The position numbers and the translations under genes are program-made. Below, piece after piece: positions 5,101 through 16,091 of a DNA stretch of 64,000 nt. Numbering within the stretch: position 1 is the first letter of the stretch; every line of letters begins with the position of its first letter. Under the pieces are notes generated by a model. The model did not search any database, was not told the origin of the DNA, and saw only the letters and a program-made list of their open reading frames with translations. Source of the stretch: Ectocarpus siliculosus (lineage: Eukaryota > Sar > Phaeophyceae > Ectocarpales > Ectocarpaceae); contig FN647790.1 of assembly GCA_000310025.1 (NCBI GenBank), positions 259,094-323,093 on the forward strand, written 5' to 3'.

Positions 5101-5177
5101 TCACACACAAATGGCTGAATGGATCGATCATAGTGGAAGCTCCACGTATGTGTTATGTAGGTACAATGTTAAGTTGC
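2133..5177. other. Gene-poor stretch left of the LTR element
   Basis: I see no convincing gene here. ORFs at 3071-3549 lie on both strands over the same bases, with no recognisable domain. Short diverged repeats built on GGTGCAGCAACC and TAGCGCMAA occur at about 4295-4480. Confidence 0.5.
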
Positions 5178-5448
5178 TGTAGGGCCTAGATAGGGTACAT
5201 CTTAGTCTAGTTATAGGATGTGGGATGTCCGTGAGGTATACCTCTCAGGGACCATACCACATCAGGACTCAGCTATCTGCGTGCCCCCTGGTTGCTATAG
5301 GAGGATCCCCTCCTCAATCAGACCTTCCTCGCTCTCAATTCAAGCAACATCTCATTTCTACACAATCGTGGAGACAAGGCATCAAGCGACCGTACCTCTT
5401 TCTTTACCCTAGGACCCAGCTGCTTCCAACAGCTGGACCTCCTTTATA
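5178..5448 (+). repeat. 5' LTR (271 bp)
   Basis: It starts TGTAGGGCCTAG and ends CTCCTTTATA. It matches 15824-16091 along its whole length with two substitutions, one 1-base indel and one 2-base indel. The start is placed at the TG where the match to the 3' copy begins. The end is the last matching base; no CA terminus is seen. Confidence 0.88.
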
Positions 5449-5547
5449 TCTGGCGTCGTCTGGCAAGTCTACGGGTAAGCTAGCGTTGGACGCGGCGCTG
5501 CTCCCGTTGTTGCTTGGTGTTTTCCAGCGTACACCTCGGGAAAATTC

Positions 5548-5925
5548 CCGCCGTTTTTTTCCCGCCGTGGTGGGCGGTCCCGGTACTGGCGGGAATTACC
5601 GCCACATTCGGTGGTACCGGGAACCGCCGAAGGCGGTACCGCCGAAAAACGAAAAACCGCCGACCGCCTAAAAAGTACCGCCACATTGCAGTACCGCCGA
5701 AAAAGTACCGCCAAAAAACGAAGTACCGGGAACCGCCTAAAAAGAACCGCCATATTGCAGTACCGCCGAAAAAGTACCGCCGTACTGCAGTACCGCCAAA
5801 ATGGTACCGCCAAAAAACGAAGTACCGGGAACCGCCAAAAGAGAACCGCCATATTGCAGTACCGCCGAAAAAACACCGCCGTACTGCAGTACCGCCAAAA
5901 TGGTACCGCCATACTTCAGTTTTGC
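5548..5925. repeat. GGCGGT/ACCGCC satellite with a 99 bp higher-order unit
   Basis: The hexamer ACCGCC recurs dozens of times, mostly spaced by A-rich triplets. A longer unit repeats every 99 bases (for example the CCAAAAAACGAAGTACCGGG block at 5711 and 5810). The left edge also has several TTCCCGCC/GGCGGGAA boxes. Because 99 is a multiple of three, the minus strand stays open for almost 200 codons of W/R/F/G repeats; I take that as a by-product. Confidence 0.85.
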
Positions 5926-6048
5926 CCTCTAAAGTAGCAGAGGGCACTAACTCTAACGCCATGTCTCGCGCAGAACAGTAGTTCGAGTCCAACTGGCGTG
6001 CGTCTTTGTTCACATTTATTCTTTTTTCTTTTTCTCTTTCGTCATACA

Positions 6049-6276
6049 TATACCGTATATGACACAAGATAACACACCCCCTGGACCGATTTTCAAAGCT
6101 CGATTACTCCACGACGAAGAGGATGCATAAACGAAACAATACATTTTCGAAAACCTCTCGACGAGACGGTTCCAACGCCGCCGTTTTCGGCGCTGTGACC
6201 CTTCCTGCTGTTGAGAAATCGAGCTTTGAAAATCTGCCCAGGGGGTGTGTTATCTTGTGTCATATACGGTATATAA
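6049..6276. mobile_element. MITE with long palindromic ends (copy 1)
   Basis: The left arm (6049-6113) and the right arm (about 6209-6276) are near-perfect inverted repeats. Both contain ATATACCGTATATGACACAA, an AACACACCCCCTGG block and TTTTCAAAGCTCGAT. About 95 bases separate them. There is no coding potential. A diverged relative lies at 31531-31742, so this is a family and not a chance hairpin. Confidence 0.85.
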
Positions 6277-6288
6277 CAGTTAAATCAT

Positions 6289-7577
6289 TTATCTTTTTCC
6301 TAGAATCGCAGCATTTTCTCCGGGTCGGGAAACGCTCTCTCGAGCGCTCTCAGGCCACCACGCTTATTCACTTGGTTTCAGACTGCAGTCCGGACCGTTC
6401 GAGCGCTGACAGGCCAGCATTTCGCATTTTGCAGTTTTCGCAATTTTGACGCTCGGAGCGCAGTTCCTTCGGTCCGATGTGCACTATCGTCCTCTCCAAT
6501 GCCATTCCGTTCGTCTCTGCCTTCTTTTTTCTCTACCGGTCTCGCTGTCTCGCCGTCCGTCGAGTCGTGAGAGACGCTCTCTCTCTCTCTCTCTTCGGCG
6601 CTTTTTCTCTCTCTCCTCTCTCGGAATTAGAATCGGAACCAGAGTCCGAATGGGCGGTACAACTCTATCATTATGGTACCAGGTATTTATATTTATTTTT
6701 TCCCCGTTTCTCTCTCTGTCTGTATCTGTGATTCTCTCTCCGTCTCTGTGTCTGTCTGTGTGTCTTTCTCTGCCTTCTCCCTCTCTCATTTGTTTCCTGT
6801 CTCTCTCTTTCTGTCTCTCTCTATCTCCCTCTGTCACACACACAATAATACCTATAATTTTTACACGTGTGTCACACATATTTTGCACTTGTGTGCGCCT
6901 CTTTTCTCATATGAATAACATATCTTTATCTTTTCTTATATGAATATCTTTTTCCGGAATCTTTATTTCGTTTATCTTTTTCCTAGAATCGCAGCATTTT
7001 CTGTGGGCCAGGGATCGTTCTCTCGAGCGCTCTCAGGCCACCACGCTTAATCACTTGCTTTCAGCGTGAAGTCCCGACCGTTCGAGCGCTCACAGGCCAG
7101 CATTTCGCATTTTGCAGTTTTCGCAATTTTGTCGCTCGGAGGGCAGTTCCTTCGGTCCGATGAGCTCTACGGTCTTCTCCAATACCATTCCATTGGTCTC
7201 TGCCTTCTTTTTTCTCTTTCCGGCCTCGCTGTCTCGCCGTCCTTCCCGTCGTGAGGGACACTCTCAGTCTCTCAGTCTCTCTCTCTCTTCGGCGCTTTTT
7301 CGCTCTCTCCTCTCTCGGAATCAGAGTCGGAATGGGCGGTACAACTTTTTTCTATTTTTTTTCCGTTTCCTTCTTTGTCTGTGTCTGTGTCTCTTTGTGT
7401 GTCTGTGTGTCTTTCCCTGCCTTCTCACTCTCTCCTTTGTTTTGTATCTCTTTTCTTTTTCTGTCTCTCTCTATCTCTCTCTGTCACACCCAATAATACC
7501 TATAATACCTATTTACACGTGTGTCGCACATACCTATTTGCACGTGTGCGACTGCATGATATCTTTTTTCGGAATCC
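6289..7577. repeat. Two TC/TG-rich direct repeats of about 0.6-0.7 kb
   Basis: Unit 1 (6289-6970) and unit 2 (6971-7577) share, in the same order, TTTATCTTTTTCCTAGAATCGC, a CTCTCGAGCGCTCTCAGGCC block, CAGCATTTCGCATTTTGCAG, a CTCTCTCTCTTCGGCGCTTTTT block and long TCTC/TGTG tracts. They sit directly before the Helitron fragment. They lack TG..CA ends, so they do not look like LTRs; a tandem duplication is simpler. Confidence 0.8.
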
Positions 7578-7589
7578 ATCGGGGTTCGG

Positions 7590-9290
7590 TCAACGAGCGG
7601 TGCATGAGGTTCGTTAGGTGGTGTCCGGATCTTCTTAGGGTGTTCGCGCACAAAGGTAATGGCAATTTCCTGGAGTCTTTCGCCACAAACCAGTGGATCG
7701 CCCCGTACAACATTTGGCTGCTTTCCAAAACAACTGCCACATGTGTTCTGACGTCTGTACAGCAGCGGCAGTAGTTCAATACATTTCCAAATACATTAAC
7801 AAGGGCGCGGACTTTATCAAGGCTAAGATCCTGTGCGACGGCGATGAAATAGAGGCCTGCCGTTCAGCGCGATACATTTCAGCTGCTGAAGCTGCGTGGC
7901 GCTTGCTGGGTAGACAGTTGCGCCAGCTATTTTTAACGCTCATTCTTGACGGAGCCCCTGCCAACCTTCTTTGGGAGCATTTCAATAAGGGCTTTACATC
8001 AGATTGGCGCATGTCCATGACCGATCTGGATGCCGATAACGCCGCCCTTCGCGAAATCGATCTCGGGTTACAGCACCATGGACGAACGAACGTTGTCGTT
8101 GGACTGCCTGCCGTAATCCATCGAGACACAGAATACTTGCGTTTCAAGCACATATTCAATCCGGAGCAAATGCGCATGTTTGTTGCCGAGCATCTCCCAA
8201 ACTTCACCGTCGAGCAACGTCATGTTTACGATAGCGTGGTTAACAGCGTGTCATCAGGATCGTCTAACGTATTCATGATAGACGCGCCTGCTGGGACGGG
8301 TAAGACACACACGGAGAGCGTACTATGCGCCCACCTACGATCACTCAGTAAATTAGCCCTTTGTGTTGCCAGTACGGGCATCGCAGGTCTCCAACTACCT
8401 GGTGGGTGGACTGCGCACTCCATGTTCAAACTACCACTGGATGAAAAGAATGTCAGCGGTGCAACGTGCAATATCTCCGCTGAGTCGCAACGAGCAGAAG
8501 TATTACGTAAGTGTGACCTTATTGTTTGGGACGAAATCCCAATGAGCCATCGTTTTTCTGTCGAAGCTCTTAATCTTACACTCCAAGATCTTATGGGCAA
8601 TAACATGATCATGGGAGGAAAGAATATCTTGCTAAGCGGTGATCTACGCCAGATAGGGCCTGTCGTCAAACATGGCGGGCCCGCGGAAACAATTAATGCG
8701 TCCATCATTTCTAGTCCGCTTTGGAAACATGTACAACGTATGCGTCTTACTATATCGCAGCGCGATCGAGAGGACGCAGCGTACGCGGCGTTCGTCCGAA
8801 ATATCGGTGTTGGTACCCAACCGCATGTTACAACAGACGACGGCGTCGATGCCGTGCTATTGGCATACGTTCATAGCATGCCAAACATAGCCTCTGACCG
8901 ATTCGTCCTTGACAACACAGACTCTTTTGAAGAATTGATCAATTTCGTGTATCCGGACATTCTCGACGCCGACCCGACTGAGTTCAAGGCTAGAGCCATC
9001 CTTTCGTCAACCAACGCTACCATAGACACCATTAACGCACACGTCCTTGACATCCTTCCAGGAGACCTTCTCACAGCATACAGTTGTGACACCGTCGATC
9101 CTGACGCGACTGACGACGGTTTGGGTTTCGTTGCCGCAGCTGACCTCCACGCTACTGACGCCTCTGGTGTACCGCCTCATGCATTGGATTTGACACTGAA
9201 CTGCATTGTCATGATCACACGACACCTATAAACTTCAAGCAGGGCTTGGTCAATGGTCAGTAGCACCTGATACACATAACTTTTCCTCTG
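7590..9290 (+). pseudogene. Truncated Helitron Rep-helicase
   Basis: The protein is the C-terminal part of a Helitron RepHel. WIAPYNIWLL followed by QYISKYINKG matches the family's VVPYNPYLL ... KYLYKYVYKG block and keeps the paired tyrosines (Y-x3-Y). A PIF1-type SF1 helicase follows: Walker A APAGTGKTHTE, motif Ia TGIAGLQLPGGWTAHSMF, Walker B IVWDEIPMSH, motif III LLSGDLRQIGPV and motif IV RLTISQR. A frameshift near 7725 separates the two Rep blocks. Near 9225 another shift and a stop cut the protein just before GLVNG, so motifs V and VI are missing. The HUH histidine region is also absent. The copy is dead but recognisable. Confidence 0.85.
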
Positions 9291-9332
9291 CTGCCCACCA
9301 AGTGTTGACTGCACCGCCGCCATCGAGATCGG

Positions 9333-10433
9333 ATGGTGGTGCCAACCAAATTGTGGAAGGTTCGGCTCCTTTGTCAAGGGGGAGTACTCGAGCACCCTGC
9401 ACCAACTCGCCGAAGCCAGCATGATGCAGGAGTGACTACTCCTAACGAACAGGTCTCTAATAGCCGCCTTGCTAACATTGACCCAGCCGGAGTTGCAGCC
9501 CGTAGGCCGCCCTCTGGAACCAGAAGCGCTGCGCTCTCGCCCGCTTCTACCTCGCTTTCAGGTTCTCCATTTTCGCGAATGGGGACCCGTCCGCTTGGTC
9601 ATTCTAGCCCCGCTGTGCCTGGTGCTCTTTCGTTGCCGATTAGCCCCGCACAAGCACAGTCGTTTGACGACACGCGTGAATATATTTCGGACAATGTTTT
9701 CCTTTTCTGGAAACCTCCTTCGATCTTCTCGCAGTGGACTCCTTCGATTTTTGACGTCCTGGGGGTGCGTTACTCATGTGGTGAGCAATTTATGATGTCG
9801 GAAAAGGCTAAGCTGTTTGGAGATACAGTCACGTACGACAAAATTATGGCCACTTCTGATCCGGCGCAACACAAGTCTTTAGGTCGTCAAGTACGTCCGT
9901 TCGATTATGCTGAATGGGAGCGTCGTCGTGAAGAGATTGTGCTTACGGGTTCGTATGCCAAATTTGCTCAGAACGCTGCCATGAAACAACATTTGTTGGC
10001 TACAGGCAACCGTATACTTGCAGAAGCTAGCCCCCTTGATACTCTTTGGGGTATTGGCTTGCCTGCACACCATCCACATGCTGCAGACCCGTCCAAATGG
10101 TCGACGTCTGGCAAAAACTTGCTTGGATTAGCATTGATGAGAGTTCGGCTTTTACTGCGAGATCGCCCGCTCGCGGGCGATGCTTCTGCCGATTCTGCTT
10201 TTGATTCTGCTTTTCCCGAGCCCCCTTCTTCTCAGCCCCCTTCAACGTCAAAGCGTCGTATTCACGAAGTAGCTTCAGCGGGCAGGCCGCCGGCCCACGA
10301 GGACCAAGATACTGGTTCGGCTGGCGTGCGTTTAGACGCCCCTGGAGATCATGCTCCTGGAGTGCATCTTGTTGCACCCACCTTTGTTTGCGATGATAAA
10401 CCTCCTCTTTGGAGCATGGGCCTGATCTCGTAG
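9333..10433 (+). CDS. NADAR (YbiA/DUF1768) domain protein in the gag position of the LTR element
   Basis: A 366-residue ORF. Residues 1-110 are Pro/Ser/Ala-rich. Residues about 122-277 (bases 9696-10164) form a complete NADAR domain: FWKPPSIFSQW, a GEQFMMSEKAKLFGD block with conserved Glu and Lys, SLGRQVRPF, the WERRREEI helix, AKFAQN, LLATGNRILAEAS, LWGIGLP and NLLGLALMRVR. All the family blocks I know are present. Family members have been linked to cleavage of N-glycosidic bonds in riboflavin intermediates and to removal of ADP-ribose from guanine. No CCHC knuckle or capsid region is visible. The stop at 10431 is followed within five bases by the protease frame, so the ORF sits where gag should be. 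The true start is uncertain: another frame (about 9250-9423) is open and could encode the original N-terminus. Confidence 0.8.
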   Translation: MVVPTKLWKVRLLCQGGVLEHPAPTRRSQHDAGVTTPNEQVSNSRLANIDPAGVAARRPPSGTRSAALSPASTSLSGSPFSRMGTRPLGHSSPAVPGALSLPISPAQAQSFDDTREYISDNVFLFWKPPSIFSQWTPSIFDVLGVRYSCGEQFMMSEKAKLFGDTVTYDKIMATSDPAQHKSLGRQVRPFDYAEWERRREEIVLTGSYAKFAQNAAMKQHLLATGNRILAEASPLDTLWGIGLPAHHPHAADPSKWSTSGKNLLGLALMRVRLLLRDRPLAGDASADSAFDSAFPEPPSSQPPSTSKRRIHEVASAGRPPAHEDQDTGSAGVRLDAPGDHAPGVHLVAPTFVCDDKPPLWSMGLIS

Positions 10434-10437
10434 GTGA

Positions 10438-11815
10438 ACTCTTTTAATAGATTCCGATTCTTACACCACCCGAGTTTGGTTACATGGTGGGCCAACTGCT
10501 ACTTCGCATCTTCCGCGGGTGGCTTTATTGGATTCTGGCTCTCCTGCGTCCTTCGTGACCGACTCTGTGGTTACTGCTATGATCGCTGCTGGTGCTTTGA
10601 CACCTGGGAGTATTCGCGTGTCGCCTTCTCGCCGTTGGGGTGGGTTTGGCGATGGGCCTGCTCTCGACACCACCAAATCTGTTCGCCTCACCGTCAACTT
10701 CCTGAATGGAGATCGTGCTACAGCTTCTTTGGCGGTTTGGGCTTGCATTGTTCCAGACAAGGCCATGGGACATGCTGTGCTTTTGGGACGTGACAGTTGG
10801 ATGCGTTTCAATTCTAGGACATTTTCAACTCTTCCTCGCCCTGGGCCGGACGGTCGTGTAATGGGTGAGCTCACGCTTTCTACGCGTTTTTCAGCTGGAG
10901 CTTGTGTTTACGCTACACATGACGAGGCACCAGAGTCTTCGTTTCACCTCAAGTATGCCGGCAGTTCGGGCATTTCTTTGGGGCCGGAGCCTACACTCAT
11001 CGAGGTCAACCTCGTCCGTTCTTCAGGTTTGCCTGCTTTGATAGGTGAGTATTTGGTGTCCTTTCGACCTGAAGTTGGTGCTCTTTCGTCTCCGGATGCG
11101 TTTGTGTCCAATGGACTTCAGCGCATCCCCCTTGCAGGTTGTGCTGAATTGGAGCCAGGCGCCATTCTTGGAGTTGCCGCGGCGCCTTTGTTGCGTGTGC
11201 CTGTGGAAACTTTGACCAAGTCTTTCACGTCCTCAACTTCGTCGACTTCGTCGACTTCGCCGTCTTCGAACTCGTCGGCTCCGTCGACATCGACGACAGC
11301 CTCTCGGGTCAACACCGTTGATCCCAATCCAGAGGCACGACAACCTTCGAACCCCGCGCCAGACCCCCCTCCGCCGAAGCCGCCCCCACAGGAACTGATG
11401 GATCGTCTGTCAGAGGCGCAACGCTCCAGCTTCTCGCGTTTGTGGGAGAGATTGCCGTCGCACATGCATACCGTCGCCTTTGATCTTCATGACCCTAATT
11501 GGTCGCCAGAGGCTATTGACCGATTAGCAGATGCATTGTGCGATTATTCTGATGTCTTTTCAACTTCGAAGACGGATTTTGGTGCTTGTGATGTTTTGCC
11601 CTTCAGCCTTTATGTTCCTCCTGGGACGAAGCCTGTCGCTTCACGTCCCTACCGCATTAACCCTTTGATGCAGAAGAAGGTGGACACAGTGTTGGATCAA
11701 TATTTGGCGGCTGGGCTTATTCAGCATTCCACCTCTCCGTGGGCCTCTCCTTTAGTGGTCATCCCCAAGAAGGACGGCTCGGTTCGGATCACCGTCAACT
11801 ACAAGTGCACTGGTG
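10438..11815 (+). pseudogene. Retropepsin-like protease and start of reverse transcriptase (pol, part 1)
   Basis: The frame is open from 10438 with no early ATG, so it was probably made as a fusion with the upstream ORF. The protease active site is ALLDSGSPASF (DSG in place of DTG) at about 10522. A Ser/Thr/Pro linker follows at about 11220-11390. The N-terminus of a Ty3/gypsy RT comes next: RPYRINPLMQKKVD, AGLIQHSTSPWASPLV and IPKKDGSVRITVNY. At about 11800-11812 a shift moves the RT into another frame, so this part ends in nonsense sequence. Confidence 0.88.
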
Positions 11816-13055
11816 GATTTAGATGGACAGCCTCTTCCGCGCTTGGACGGAATTTTGGACTCTTTGTACACAGGGAAGGTATTTTCCATCTTTGATCTCA
11901 ACTCTGCTTTTCACCAGATTGTGTGCGACGAGGAGACCGTGCCTCTCACAGCCTTTTGCACGCCGACACAGCTCTTTGAGTGGCTGCGAATGCCGCACGG
12001 AGCTAACGCGAGCCCTTCGTGGTTCGTGAAGGTCATCAACCGTGTGGTGCAAGGCTTGGACCGCGTTTTGGCGTATTTGGACGATGTCATTTGCTTTGAC
12101 GAGGAACCTTTGGAGCATGTGCGTAACATGATTGAATTCTTCAAACGCCTACGACAGTACAACCTCAAGCTGTCTCCAGGGAAGGCCCGTGTCGGAGCTA
12201 CTCACGCCAATTTTCTGGGCCACACCATCTCCCCAGCCGGCGTTAGTCCGGATGGCGACAAGGTTCGAGCGCTCACGAAGATGCCACCGCCGGCGAATGT
12301 CAAGCAACTTCGGAGTCTCCTAGGCGGTTTGAGCTACTACAGGAAATTTCTGAAGAACCTTGCCTCCAAGGTAAGACTGCTCAACGCCCTTCTCAAACAA
12401 GGCGTTCAGTTTAAGTACACCCCGAACATGGTCACGATGGTCAAATCGCTGCTTCACGACCTCTCCCGCCCCCCGATTTTGGTTTTCCCTGATTGGGATG
12501 CGGTTGAAGACAACAGTCGCCCTCTCCGTTTGTGCTCAGACGCCTGTATAGACGGGTTTGGCGCTTCTCTAGAGCAAGAACAGTTGGATGGCACTGTGCG
12601 GCCTATTGTGTACATTAGCCGCGCTACTCTTCCTGCCGAACGCAACTGGACCGGTTTGGATTTGGAGGCTGGTAGCATTGTCTGGGCTATTAAACGGCTT
12701 CGCTGATACCTTTGGTCGACAAAGTTTGTCATTTATTCTGATCACAAGGCTTTGGAGAGCATTGGCAAGGTCGGCGAACACAATGCTCGTGTGCAACGTT
12801 GGTTGGAGTATTTGCCCAACTTCACATACACTGTGGAGTACAGGAAAGGTTCGACGAATGGCAACGCGGATTTTCTTTCGAGACTGCCGTTGCCAGCGAG
12901 AGAGGAGGACAAGACCGGGCCTGACAGCATCGACGGTATTGACCAGGCGGGCGTTTTTCTCATCCGGGCTTGTGGGTTCACCTATCATTCGTCTTCTACA
13001 CCGGAGGTCGGTTTGGGTGGGCTCCGCCCTCCCTGTTCCGATGGTGTTTTCCACC
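11805..13055 (+). pseudogene. Reverse transcriptase core and RNase H (pol, part 2)
   Basis: Continuing in the next frame: DGQPLPRLDGILDSL, FSIFDLNSAFHQIV, the catalytic AYLDDVICF, LGHTISPAGV and LRSLLGGLSYYRKF are standard Ty3/gypsy RT blocks. RNase H follows with LCSDACIDGFGASL and YISRATLPAERNW. A TGA at 12704-12706 interrupts RNase H where an arginine codon would fit. The same frame then continues through VIYSDHKALESI and GNADFLSRLP, which are normal RNase H C-terminal motifs. The frame changes again at roughly 12950-13080. Confidence 0.88.
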
Positions 13056-15270
13056 TTCTGTCTTGGAAGATTCGGACTATGGAGATTTTCGCAGACATGG
13101 ACCACGCATGGACGAGCTTGCATCTTCGCCTCCTGCTGGAAAAGATTGCAGGAGTTCTTCGGGAGTTTTCGCGGTTTCGCCCGCTTCTGGAGATACTGTG
13201 CCTGTTTCTCCGTCTCCTTTCGTACCCATCAAGTCGCATTGTGCACGCCGGCATGTCCACGTTTTGTCTTCGTTGCCGGAACAAGGACCCCTTGTTTCTT
13301 CGAGGACTAGGGCCAGGACTTCAGCGGCGTCAGGTTCTCCTGTCGCTGGCCCCAAATATTTTAGACGACAGCCAAGGGCTACTGTAGTCCCTCGGGCTTC
13401 GTCGCCTGCTCGTCGCCCTAGCAGGTCTCGTCAGACGGCCAAGACAGCTGGGACTGGTCCCCCCTTGTCTCGGATTCCCGCGACGCCTACATCGGCGCCT
13501 TCGTCGACTGTTTCGGTACCGCCGGTGATTTCGCCGTCGTCTGCGACCCCATCTTCCCCGGTTTCGTCTTCTTTTAGGTCGTCACCTGGGACCACGGATT
13601 TTTCTGCATCTTCTTCGGCTGGTTCGTCAGGAGATTCTTTTGATCCAACCGCCGAGGATTCTTCCTATTTACAGGATTGTGTCCAGAGTTTCAAAACAGT
13701 GGATTGGGCTCGGGAACAACAGCGAGAGAGTGAATGCGTTGTAGCCATGCGTTTTCTCTCCCGAGGTTCTCCCTCTCCACCTCCATCGGATTTGTTGAAT
13801 GTACCTGCCCCCCTTCGCTCCCCTAAACTAACGGATGTGTTGGCATTGGCTTCAAAAACACATTTGCATACAACCGACGCCAACATCACGCTTCTAGTTC
13901 ATAAATCGGCGCCTCGGCCGGTTGGGCGTGCTGGAGGTAGGACCACTCGATTGCCGGATACTGGGGTACCCCGCATCTACGTGCCGATGTTGATGCGCCC
14001 ATGGGTTCTCCGTGCTTGTCACACGACTGCTTCGTTTCATTTAGGAGTACACCGCACTTTACGGCTGCTGGAGCGTTTTTATTGGTGGTCCGGCATGGAT
14101 CGCTCTGTTCGCTGGTGGCTTTGGTCGTGTTTGGTGTGCCAGGCTCGCAAGATTTCACGTCAGACCACTCGATGGCCCGAAATTGCCATGCCTTTGCCGC
14201 ACGGTCCCGGCATTTTGGTAGGAGTCGATTTTTTCGGACCTTTGCCGGTGACTGCCAAGGGCAACTCCTACATTTTACTGTTCACGGATCGCTTCAGCCG
14301 CCGCGCGGATATGTTCGCGGTCACTGCGGCCGGATTCACGGCCAAAGGGGCTGCTAACGTGTTTGTGAACCAGTACATGACAAAGTGGGGATGTCCGACC
14401 ACTTTGTTGTCGGACAATGGAATGCAGTTTTGCTCGAAACTCTCCATGGCTATCTACGACGCGATGAAGATCAAGAAAGTCACCACGAGCGCCTACCACC
14501 CGCAAACAAATGGAGGTACAGAACGCGTTAATCACACCATGGCTCAGATGCTTGCTGTGGTTGTCAACGAGAGCCAAACGGATTGGGATGTGCATTTGCC
14601 ACACGTCGAGTTCGCCTACAACAACTCTGTCAATCAAGCCACCGGGCTAACGCCGAACGAGATACAAATGGGACGAATTCCGCGCTTACCGCTTTCGGTG
14701 TTTGATCACCCTACGGTTGGTGGTCATCAGAGTTTAGATCGCGACCAATTGGAGTACTGCAATTTGGCTGTGGACCACCAACGTCGGGCGTACGATCTCG
14801 TTCGTGAGTACAACGCGCTGAAAGTTTCGCGTGTCGAGCGCCGCAACTCCTCTCTTCTTGACGCCATCAATGAGCTCCCTACGTTTATCGCTGGAGGCTG
14901 GGTTTGGGTGTACAACACAGCTGCCACCATTCGGCGAGCGGTCAAGAAGGACACGGATCAACAGGTGCTCAAGGTTAAGTTTTCGCTTCCTTGGACAGGG
15001 CCCTACAAAGGTCTTGCTGTGGGTCCCGCCTCTGCTGATGATACTCCAGATGGTCGGCCTTTGGGAAGCAAACCACTGTGTCTCGATCTCCCTTCGGATC
15101 TTTCTGGTCCTGTGTTCAATATCGCCATTGTGCGCGGGATACAGGGCGATTCGTCGCTTTCCTTTTTCCGCCCTCGATTTTTTTTATGTCCTGGAGCAAT
15201 TATATCGCTTATTTGGGCTACGTTGGTTGAAAGGTTTTGTCGCAGGCCTAGCCGTGGTCGACCCTGTTGA
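13056..15270 (+). pseudogene. Integrase with GPY/F-type C-terminus (pol, part 3)
   Basis: After a long Ser/Pro-rich linker, the HHCC zinc finger reads HLGVHRTL ... CLVCQARK. The catalytic core has VGVDFFGPLP, LLSDNGMQF and GGTERVNH; 35 residues separate the second Asp and the Glu, the standard DD35E spacing. The C-terminus has GGWVWVYN and PWTGPYKG, resembling the GPY/F module. I see no chromodomain. The integrase itself is intact, but it is out of frame with RNase H. The open frame technically begins near 12970. Confidence 0.88.
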
Positions 15271-15823
15271 TCGTTCACTCTATCTCTCTAAGTAGTCATG
15301 CCTTCCTTACCAGCGAAATCAACTTTGTCACCCTGAAGTGGTGCACCTACCGTGGCTTCCCATTGCTCCTTTTGATTGGGTTTTGAAGTTGATATTTTGT
15401 TGTTGTTGGCGTCTTCTGGACTCTTTCGGGTAGTCACTCTCATTCCTCCAGTTGAGATACGCGCCCGTGCGCGTAAAAGAGTGGTGTGTGGCGTTTTGAT
15501 ATTGATTTTGTATTGTCATCTATGTTAATGTGCTTTGCAGCATTTTCTTACCTAGCCATATCCCCTTTTATGGGTAATAGCATTTTTCATTGAGCCGCAT
15601 TTGTGTTGTCAATTTGGTTATGCAAGCTCTGTCTCAATGGTGGTGTGGGGGGTAGATTCGGGATATTTCTACAGCTCCCCTTCCCTTGGGATGATATTGT
15701 GAAGAGTCATATCTTTCGATTCAGGAGTATTAATTATCAGCTCTTCTGGATCGAGTTTATTGGATTTGAGTATAGAATCTGCATAGATGATCTTCAGGGT
15801 GGGCTAGTGTTAAGGAGTGTTTC
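15271..15823. other. 3' untranslated stretch before the 3' LTR
   Basis: No ORF of note. A G-rich run (GGTGGTGTGGGGGGTAG, about 15639-15655) could be a polypurine tract, but it lies about 170 bases before the LTR, further than usual. Confidence 0.4.
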
Positions 15824-16091
15824 TGTACGGCCTAGATAGGGTACATCTTAGTCTAGTATAGGATGTGGGATGTCCGTGAGGTATACCTCTCAGGGACCAT
15901 ACCACATCAGGACTCAGCTATCTGCGTGCCCCCTGGTTGCTAGGAGGATCCCCTCCTCAATCAGACCTTCCTCGCTCTCAATTCAAGCAACATCTCATTT
16001 CTACACAATCGTGGAGACAAGGCATCAAGCGACCGTACCTCTTTCTTTACCCTAGGACCCAGCTGCTTCCAACAGCTTGACCTCCTTTATA
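15824..16091 (+). repeat. 3' LTR (268 bp)
   Basis: It matches the 5' LTR throughout, from TGTACGGCCTAG to CTCCTTTATA. The 3-base length difference is explained by a 1-base and a 2-base indel. Host-like sequence with no similarity to the interior begins at 16092. Confidence 0.88.

What the first reader, a model, noticed from the sequence alone, without database searches (positions are those of the whole stretch)
9333..10433. NADAR domain carried by an LTR retrotransposon in place of gag
A complete-looking NADAR (YbiA/DUF1768) domain lies directly upstream of the retropepsin of a Ty3/gypsy element, where gag normally sits. It is the only long intact ORF in an otherwise broken element. Relatives act on N-glycosidic or ADP-ribose linkages, and some reverse guanine ADP-ribosylation. 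The element may thus have captured an enzyme that counters an ADP-ribose-based host defence, or that is packaged with its particle. I cannot say whether such fusions are already described.
Basis: partly seen in the sequence, partly recalled or inferred. Interest (0 to 1): 0.88.

Follow-up and report, generated by a model that had tools for sequence, protein, structure and literature searches.

The report
Algal retrotransposon carrying a NADAR enzyme
A brown-algal jumping gene carries an ADP-ribose-type enzyme domain inside its polymerase protein; relatives keep the usual coat-protein gene beside it, and such elements were already reported in Ectocarpus in 2025.

Summary
The NADAR domain is real: window 9705-10160, PF08719, E 3.5e-45. 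"In place of gag" is wrong. This copy lost gag: window 5525-9259 is unrelated DNA with a PIF1 helicase fragment, and no gag match was found in the window. The nearest copies (NADAR ORF 97-98% identical) have a zinc-knuckle gag upstream. The genome has 150 scored NADAR places. Gag lies upstream in 34 of 37 other distinct loci searched. Layout in relatives: gag, TGA, then pol with NADAR, protease region, RT, RNaseH, integrase. Eight ADP-ribose-contacting residues of a solved NADAR are in the window copy, each in 32-34 of 34 aligned copies. NADAR changes nearly as slowly as RT, far slower than the linker before it. The host is Ectocarpus-like (inference). PMC12477816 (2025, passages read) already reports an Ectocarpus Gypsy lineage with NADAR at the N-terminus of Pol. 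Most likely it is an active N-glycosyl/ADP-ribose hydrolase made within Gag-Pol; substrate and activity are untested. Leads: the TGA-C gag stop, and another LTR element with NADAR plus a weak Macro match.

The parts
5173..5448 (+). 5' LTR as aligned (true ends not fixed; no target-site duplication recognised)
   Evidence: 270/276 identical to 15819-16091; 40 LTR-like matches scored of 124 candidates in the genome
5449..5524 (+). leader after the 5' LTR, last stretch shared with gag-bearing copies before the replacement
   Evidence: LTR plus leader match to L041, window 5173-5524, 98.6%
5525..9259 (.). foreign DNA standing where L041/L042 have gag and the start of pol (about 5.3 kb there)
   Evidence: no DNA match to the L041/L042 internal region and no gag by tblastn with two gag proteins in the window
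7660..9231 (+). PIF1-type helicase fragment, Helitron-like (name inferred), inside the foreign stretch
   Evidence: PF05970 E 4.7e-53 on 7693-9228; stop-to-stop frame 7660-9231
9260..9704 (+). remaining pol linker before NADAR (contains a frame break)
   Evidence: 9260 is where the match to L030 starts; linker dN/dS 0.385 against L011
9705..10160 (+). NADAR domain (YbiA type)
   Evidence: PF08719 E 3.5e-45; TIGR02464 134.8 bits over cut-off 73.7; 8bau match
10438..11805 (+). protease-like stretch (DSGSP, motif recalled) and spacer to RT, another frame than NADAR
   Evidence: 82% to L011 pol 542-985; no Pfam family at E 0.001 in 10519-11892
11804..13051 (+). reverse transcriptase and RNase H, one stop inside
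   Evidence: PF00078, PF17919, PF17917 on 11813-12703; 89% to L011 pol
13048..14790 (+). integrase (H2C2 and rve)
   Evidence: PF17921, PF00665; 73% to L011 pol
15819..16091 (+). 3' LTR as aligned

Best explanation
The window holds a broken copy of a brown-algal Ty3/gypsy lineage whose Pol polyprotein starts with a linker and a NADAR domain, downstream of a gag (shown in relatives). Gag ends in TGA followed by C, and pol continues in the same frame, with no early methionine in two of the four junction types looked at. So Pol, and NADAR with it, is probably made by stop readthrough as Gag-Pol and enters the particle at Pol level (inferred). NADAR keeps the residues that hold ADP-ribose in a solved relative, and it is constrained nearly like RT. 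It is therefore most likely an active N-glycosyl/ADP-ribose hydrolase (inferred). The most likely use is to clear ADP-ribose, or a similar N-glycosidic adduct, from the element's RNA, cDNA or proteins during reverse transcription, made by host ADP-ribosyltransferases or RNA processing (speculative). The apparent swap of gag for NADAR here is a local loss in this copy, now filled by Helitron-type DNA.
For: NADAR match. Multi-copy: 150 places scored of 230 first-look candidates. Gag upstream on the same strand in 34 of 37 other distinct NADAR loci searched, including all five near copies of the window (L030-L034); two with full 5' flank show the LTR then gag (L041, L042). Domain order in relatives. 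Residues (numbering of PMC11543638): E43, K50, D130 and W133 in 34 of 34 aligned copies, E125 in 33, R79, W89 and R93 in 32; four of the 38 loci (L001, L031, L033, L034) were left out as split or short. Constraint: window vs L011 NADAR dN/dS 0.185 at dS 0.87, neighbouring linker 0.385; L010 against L011, L015 and L026: NADAR pN 0.24-0.33, RT 0.23-0.28, linker 0.52-0.56. TGA+C gag end in 16 of 18 loci with a knuckle-bearing gag frame, which are near-copies of four junction types; first Met of pol at residue 220 (L011, L012) or 380 (L009).
Against: No activity, expression, processing or packaging was tested, and no structure model could be run. The linker and tail also give dN/dS below 1 (0.385, 0.22). 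Synonymous sites are saturated or nearly so in the other subfamily pairs, so only window vs L011 gives a usable ratio. Among young L005-type copies non-synonymous differences outnumber synonymous (62.5 vs 22.5, pooled over 28 pairs), while in the L011 type it is the reverse (290 vs 570, 78 pairs). No DarT match in the genome. NCBIfam's best match is riboflavin-intermediate N-glycosidase, so ADP-ribose may not be the substrate. L010/L023 pol has a Met at residue 13 and L028 at 36, so pol could start by another route there.
Confidence: 0.6

Rival explanations
1. NADAR replaced gag in this family.
For: In the window copy NADAR is the first recognisable element domain after the LTR and leader, and no gag was found. 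L035 and L036 also show no gag match in about 1.9 kb upstream.
Against: The five nearest copies and 34 of 37 other loci searched have gag upstream with NADAR in pol. The third miss, L021, has only about 0.6 kb of upstream DNA held.
Confidence: 0.02
2. NADAR serves as a binding or targeting module (ADP-ribose, NAD or nucleic acid) without needing catalysis, for example to steer the particle or the integration complex.
For: Accessory domains of retroelements often target; the Ectocarpus paper reports chromodomains in three of the four Gypsy lineages (PMC12477816). Binding alone would also preserve the pocket residues.
Against: The positions equivalent to those whose mutation impaired E. coli C7 NADAR (PMC11543638, passages: K95, E88, D171) are kept in 33-34 of 34 copies. 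In that paper E88A alone had only a minor effect in vitro.
Confidence: 0.2
3. It is a metabolic N-glycosidase on riboflavin intermediates (TIGR02464 function), giving a growth or damage-control benefit unrelated to defence.
For: TIGR02464 is the best NCBIfam match, 134.8 bits over cut-off 73.7.
Against: I know of no reason for such an enzyme inside Pol before the protease; NADARs tested in PMC11125620 cleave guanine-ADP-ribose (passages). That TIGR02464 names YbiA-like proteins at large is my inference.
Confidence: 0.08
4. A passive passenger: a host or bacterial gene piece picked up once and not used.
For: The host carries its own NADAR gene (L043), so a source is at hand; L005-type young copies show no constraint.
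Against: It is present in each subfamily examined (loci were found by NADAR, so NADAR-less members would have been missed), with the pocket conserved and dN/dS 0.185 over dS 0.87.
Confidence: 0.05

Closest known systems
NADAR-bearing Gypsy lineage of Ectocarpus sp. 7, e.g. Gypsy-12_Ec32 (PMC12477816, passages read)
   Same: Ty3/gypsy; [quoted passage not shown] brown alga; several families sharing the domain
   Different: No sequence of Gypsy-12_Ec32 was available to compare. The passages I saw do not mention catalytic residues, dN/dS or the gag stop. The window copy itself lacks gag.
Phytophthora nicotianae NADAR (PDB 8bau; PMC11543638, passages read)
   Same: YbiA-type NADAR with glutamate at position 125; all eight named ADP-ribose contacts present in the window domain
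   Different: Not part of a retroelement polyprotein as described there; its chain has an insertion against the element-based profile
Tx1 LINE ORF1 NADARs of Crassostrea gigas (reported in PMC12477816)
   Same: NADAR carried by a retrotransposon
   Different: Non-LTR element, NADAR in ORF1; not examined here
P0005, an LTR-type element protein from an unnamed ENA contig
   Same: Protease, RT, RNaseH and integrase families plus NADAR
   Different: NADAR lies between RNaseH and integrase, with a weak Macro-like match before it; RT-RNaseH only 23% identical to L010; LTRs not seen
NADAR and Macro domains in polyproteins of RNA viruses (PMC9503650, passages read)
   Same: ADP-ribose-processing domain embedded in a replicase polyprotein
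   Different: Positive-strand RNA viruses, not retroelements

Membership tests
[quoted passage not shown]
NADAR-bearing Ectocarpus Gypsy lineage (PMC12477816) | Ty3/gypsy order RT, RNaseH, integrase between LTRs | tested here: met
   protease by a recalled DSGSP motif only, plus one weak RVP_2 match in L028 (E 0.043, under cut-off)
NADAR-bearing Ectocarpus Gypsy lineage (PMC12477816) | separate gag with zinc knuckle (from its figure legend: 'ZnK = Gag zinc knuckle'; figure not seen) | tested here: met
   met in relatives, including near copies of the window; not met in the window copy itself. Pfam has no hit in the gag ORFs
NADAR-bearing Ectocarpus Gypsy lineage (PMC12477816) | C-terminal chromodomain after integrase | tested here: inconclusive
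   one weak Chromo match in L025 pol, E 0.077, 13.4 bits under cut-off 25.1; of the fetched intact-frame pols only L010 and L025 were scanned to that end, and L010 was cut short by its frame end
NADAR-bearing Ectocarpus Gypsy lineage (PMC12477816) | sequence kinship with Gypsy-12_Ec32 | not testable with these tools
   its sequence was not at hand; the only named relative is P0004, Ectocarpus sp. CCAP 1310/34, which matches places in this genome at up to 98% over parts
NADAR superfamily, YbiA subfamily | profile match over the full length | tested here: met
   PF08719 2-163/163; 8bau E 3.3e-34 and 2b3w E 1.2e-17 by profile
NADAR superfamily, YbiA subfamily | glutamate at the 125 position | tested here: met
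   E in 33 of 34 copies, the window included
NADAR superfamily, YbiA subfamily | hydrolysis of guanine-ADP-ribose | not testable with these tools
   needs a bench assay
DarT1-linked (BC4488) NADAR antitoxins | aspartate in place of that glutamate, and a DarT partner | tested here: not met
   glutamate present; no PF14487 match in the genome, the same search ringing in 1 of 14 control genomes

The most novel reading that the evidence does not exclude
ADP-ribose erasers are a recurrent accessory of retroelements. Distant elements (the brown-algal lineage with NADAR before the protease; P0005 with a Macro-like stretch plus NADAR between RNaseH and integrase; the RT-bearing giant protein P0007; the oyster Tx1 LINEs reported in PMC12477816) each took up such a domain to remove host-made ADP-ribose from their RNA, cDNA or particle proteins. 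In the algal lineage the eraser is delivered inside the particle through Gag-TGA-Pol readthrough.
Probability: 0.25. Interest if true: 0.8.

Novelty: already known. Interest (0 to 1): 0.4.

Why it matters
If the domain is active, it would place ADP-ribose (or N-glycosidic base-adduct) removal inside a retrotransposon particle, pointing to a host modification acting on retroelement nucleic acid or protein in brown algae. The fusion itself is published; what is added here is evidence that the enzyme pocket is kept under constraint, that gag is present, and that Pol follows gag through a TGA-C junction.

Tried and rejected
Gag replacement was rejected. A lone host gene or chance match was rejected; the host's own gene is separate, with matched pieces spaced like exons (L043). 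The donor is open. In a 43-row tree the element domains group (91/78, not starred), with unnamed ENA proteins (P0030 and P0042, besides P0008 and P0027) inside the group, apart from seven named bacterial NADARs. Holding the elements as one clade with the five brown-algal short NADARs is not rejected (p 0.407), nor is one origin with P0005-P0007 (p 0.181, long branches). So independent capture by P0005-P0007 rests on domain position and RT distance, not on the tree. A tyrosine recombinase was looked for in the C-terminal pieces of P0006 and P0007 and not found by Pfam. The Macro-like stretch of P0005 has no PDB sequence match better than E 0.8. No paper held macrodomain, LTR retrotransposon and ADP-ribose together. 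Structure prediction never ran, so no fold comparison was made. Rfam and tRNA scans of the window were empty.

Full report
What is in the window. The ORF at 9333-10433 encodes a full-length NADAR domain (PF08719, E 3.5e-45). It lies in an LTR element with LTRs at 5173-5448 and 15819-16091, 270 of 276 aligned positions identical. Downstream follow a protease-like stretch with DSGSP (motif recalled; Pfam found nothing in 10519-11892), RT and RNaseH, and integrase. The pol of this copy is broken: NADAR, protease, RT and integrase are spread over three frames, with one stop in the RNaseH part. NADAR is not the only long frame; 485-aa and 775-aa frames also lie in the element. The ATG at 9333 is mechanical: likeness to L011 starts about 12 residues later, and the preceding linker is in another frame.

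Gag. The Pfam profile finds 150 scored NADAR places (of 230 candidates) in the 189-Mb genome of the window; 26 of these rows give an open frame of 2,000 aa or more. I fetched 19 of those 26 plus one divergent place, with flanks, and had loci cut by searches and the 5' flanks of two near copies. In full copies there are two ORFs. In L010, ORF1 has 915 aa with a CX2CX4HX4C knuckle; after one stop, ORF2 (2,175 aa) reads linker, NADAR (384-533), protease region, RT, RNaseH, integrase. Pfam has no hit in the eight ORF1-type frames scanned, even at E 1. "Gag" therefore rests on position, the knuckle, a shared region across subfamilies and weak matches of the knuckle columns to retroviral nucleocapsid (E 0.03 and above). 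A profile started from this gag region was run on the fetched loci, not on the window. It finds gag upstream of NADAR in 34 of 37 distinct loci. The misses are L021 (about 0.6 kb upstream held) and L035 and L036 (none in about 1.9 kb). The loci were picked for long frames, score or likeness to the window, not at random, and all were found through NADAR.

The window copy. The nearest matches to the window ORF are at C18 (98%, full length), C472 (97%, full length), C1 (98%, query 1-821), C3 (98%, query 390-1101) and C26 (89% and 85% in two pieces); the remaining places listed are at 70-75%. All five show gag pieces upstream (L030-L034). L041 and L042 show LTR, then gag, then pol, at 98.6% and 94.5% in the LTR and leader. 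The window has no match to their internal region and no gag by tblastn with two gag proteins. Window 5525-9259 holds a PIF1 helicase frame, which I take as Helitron-like from general knowledge. Gag was therefore lost from this copy, not replaced by NADAR in the family.

Is NADAR used? PMC11543638 (passages read) names E43, K50, R79, W89, R93, E125, D130 and W133 of the Phytophthora nicotianae NADAR as ADP-ribose contacts. Mutants were made in E. [quoted passage not shown] All eight residues are present in the window domain. Across 34 aligned copies (of 38; L001, L031, L033 and L034 left out as split or short) E43, K50, D130 and W133 are in 34, E125 in 33 (K in L035), and R79, W89 and R93 in 32; in L025 and L028 that stretch reads out of frame. 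Window vs L011: NADAR 159 codons, dS 0.87, dN 0.16, ratio 0.185; linker ratio 0.385; tail 0.22. Other subfamily pairs are saturated or nearly so at silent sites. For L010 against L011, L015 and L026 the share of changed non-synonymous sites is 0.24-0.33 for NADAR, 0.23-0.28 for RT, 0.15-0.23 for integrase, 0.33-0.38 for the protease region and 0.52-0.56 for the linker. Within groups, pooled over pairs that are not independent, synonymous vs non-synonymous differences are 570 vs 290 (L011 type, 78 pairs), 22.5 vs 62.5 (L005 type, 28 pairs), 28 vs 21 (L009 type, 6 pairs) and 5 vs 2 (window type, 1 pair); the L005 type shows no constraint, as recent copies may.

Expression. Among L009-L028, 18 loci have a knuckle-bearing gag frame with an end in view; in 16 it ends in TGA followed by C (L015 and L020 end earlier in TAG). 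In 11 of the 16 the next frame, in register, is at least 1,593 codons and holds NADAR. These are near-copies of four junction types. The first methionine of pol is at residue 220 (L011, L012) or 380 (L009), but at 13 in L010 and L023 and 36 in L028. Stop readthrough to Gag-Pol is the simplest reading, untested. It would put NADAR in the particle.

Origin and host. Searching this genome with P0004 (named Ectocarpus sp. CCAP 1310/34) gives its strongest RT-side matches at 85-94% and integrase-side matches mostly at 94-97%, with a few lower (down to 63-75%; 32 of 1,459 candidates scored). The host NADAR gene at C24 is 83-95% identical, in its three cleanly matched pieces, to a protein named Ectocarpus sp. 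13, and less like Pylaiella and Scytosiphon ones. The host is thus probably Ectocarpus or a near relative. Element NADARs group in the trees, without top support; the donor (host or bacterium) is open.

Prior art. [quoted passage not shown] It is the only paper on NADAR in retrotransposons that I found in the held library. One search listed 20 of 104 papers and one search listed 10 of 80; others (14; 15; 1; 2) were listed in full. Apart from passages of PMC11125620, PMC9503650 and PMC11543638, only listings were seen. The finding is therefore already known in kind.

Wider lead. A protein search with the NADAR part of L010 pol gave 7 proteins. Besides four of the same type (P0001-P0004), P0005 is an LTR-type element protein with NADAR between RNaseH and integrase, preceded by a weak Macro-like match (Pfam E 0.0012, under its cut-off; NCBIfam ADP-ribose-binding E 1.6e-4, under its cut-off). 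P0006 (NADAR plus a C5-methylase match, no RT by Pfam) and P0007 (NADAR plus RT) are giant proteins of unnamed hosts. These suggest, but do not show, repeated uptake of ADP-ribose-processing domains by retroelements. A search with the P0005 NADAR returned only itself.

Noticed in passing
L009-L028, gag-pol junctions (e.g. L010:2849-2851): Gag ends in TGA followed by C in 16 of 18 loci (four junction types), with pol in the same frame and, in two types, no early Met: a possible conserved stop-readthrough site.
   Followed up: partly
P0005 residues about 1038-1382: An LTR-type element protein from an unnamed host with a weak Macro-like match before NADAR, both between RNaseH and integrase.
   Followed up: partly
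P0006 and P0007: Very large proteins: P0006 joins NADAR with a C5 DNA methylase match, P0007 joins NADAR with a reverse transcriptase; hosts unnamed; no recombinase found by Pfam.
   Followed up: partly
L043 (G000:C24:2124900-2127300): Host gene in exon-like pieces with a cysteine-rich N-terminus and NADAR, matched by proteins named Ectocarpus, Pylaiella and Scytosiphon.
   Followed up: partly
window 7660-9231: Helitron-like PIF1 helicase fragment lying where gag is lost.
   Followed up: no
window 5594-5920: Tandem ACCGCC-rich repeat array just inside the foreign stretch.
   Followed up: no
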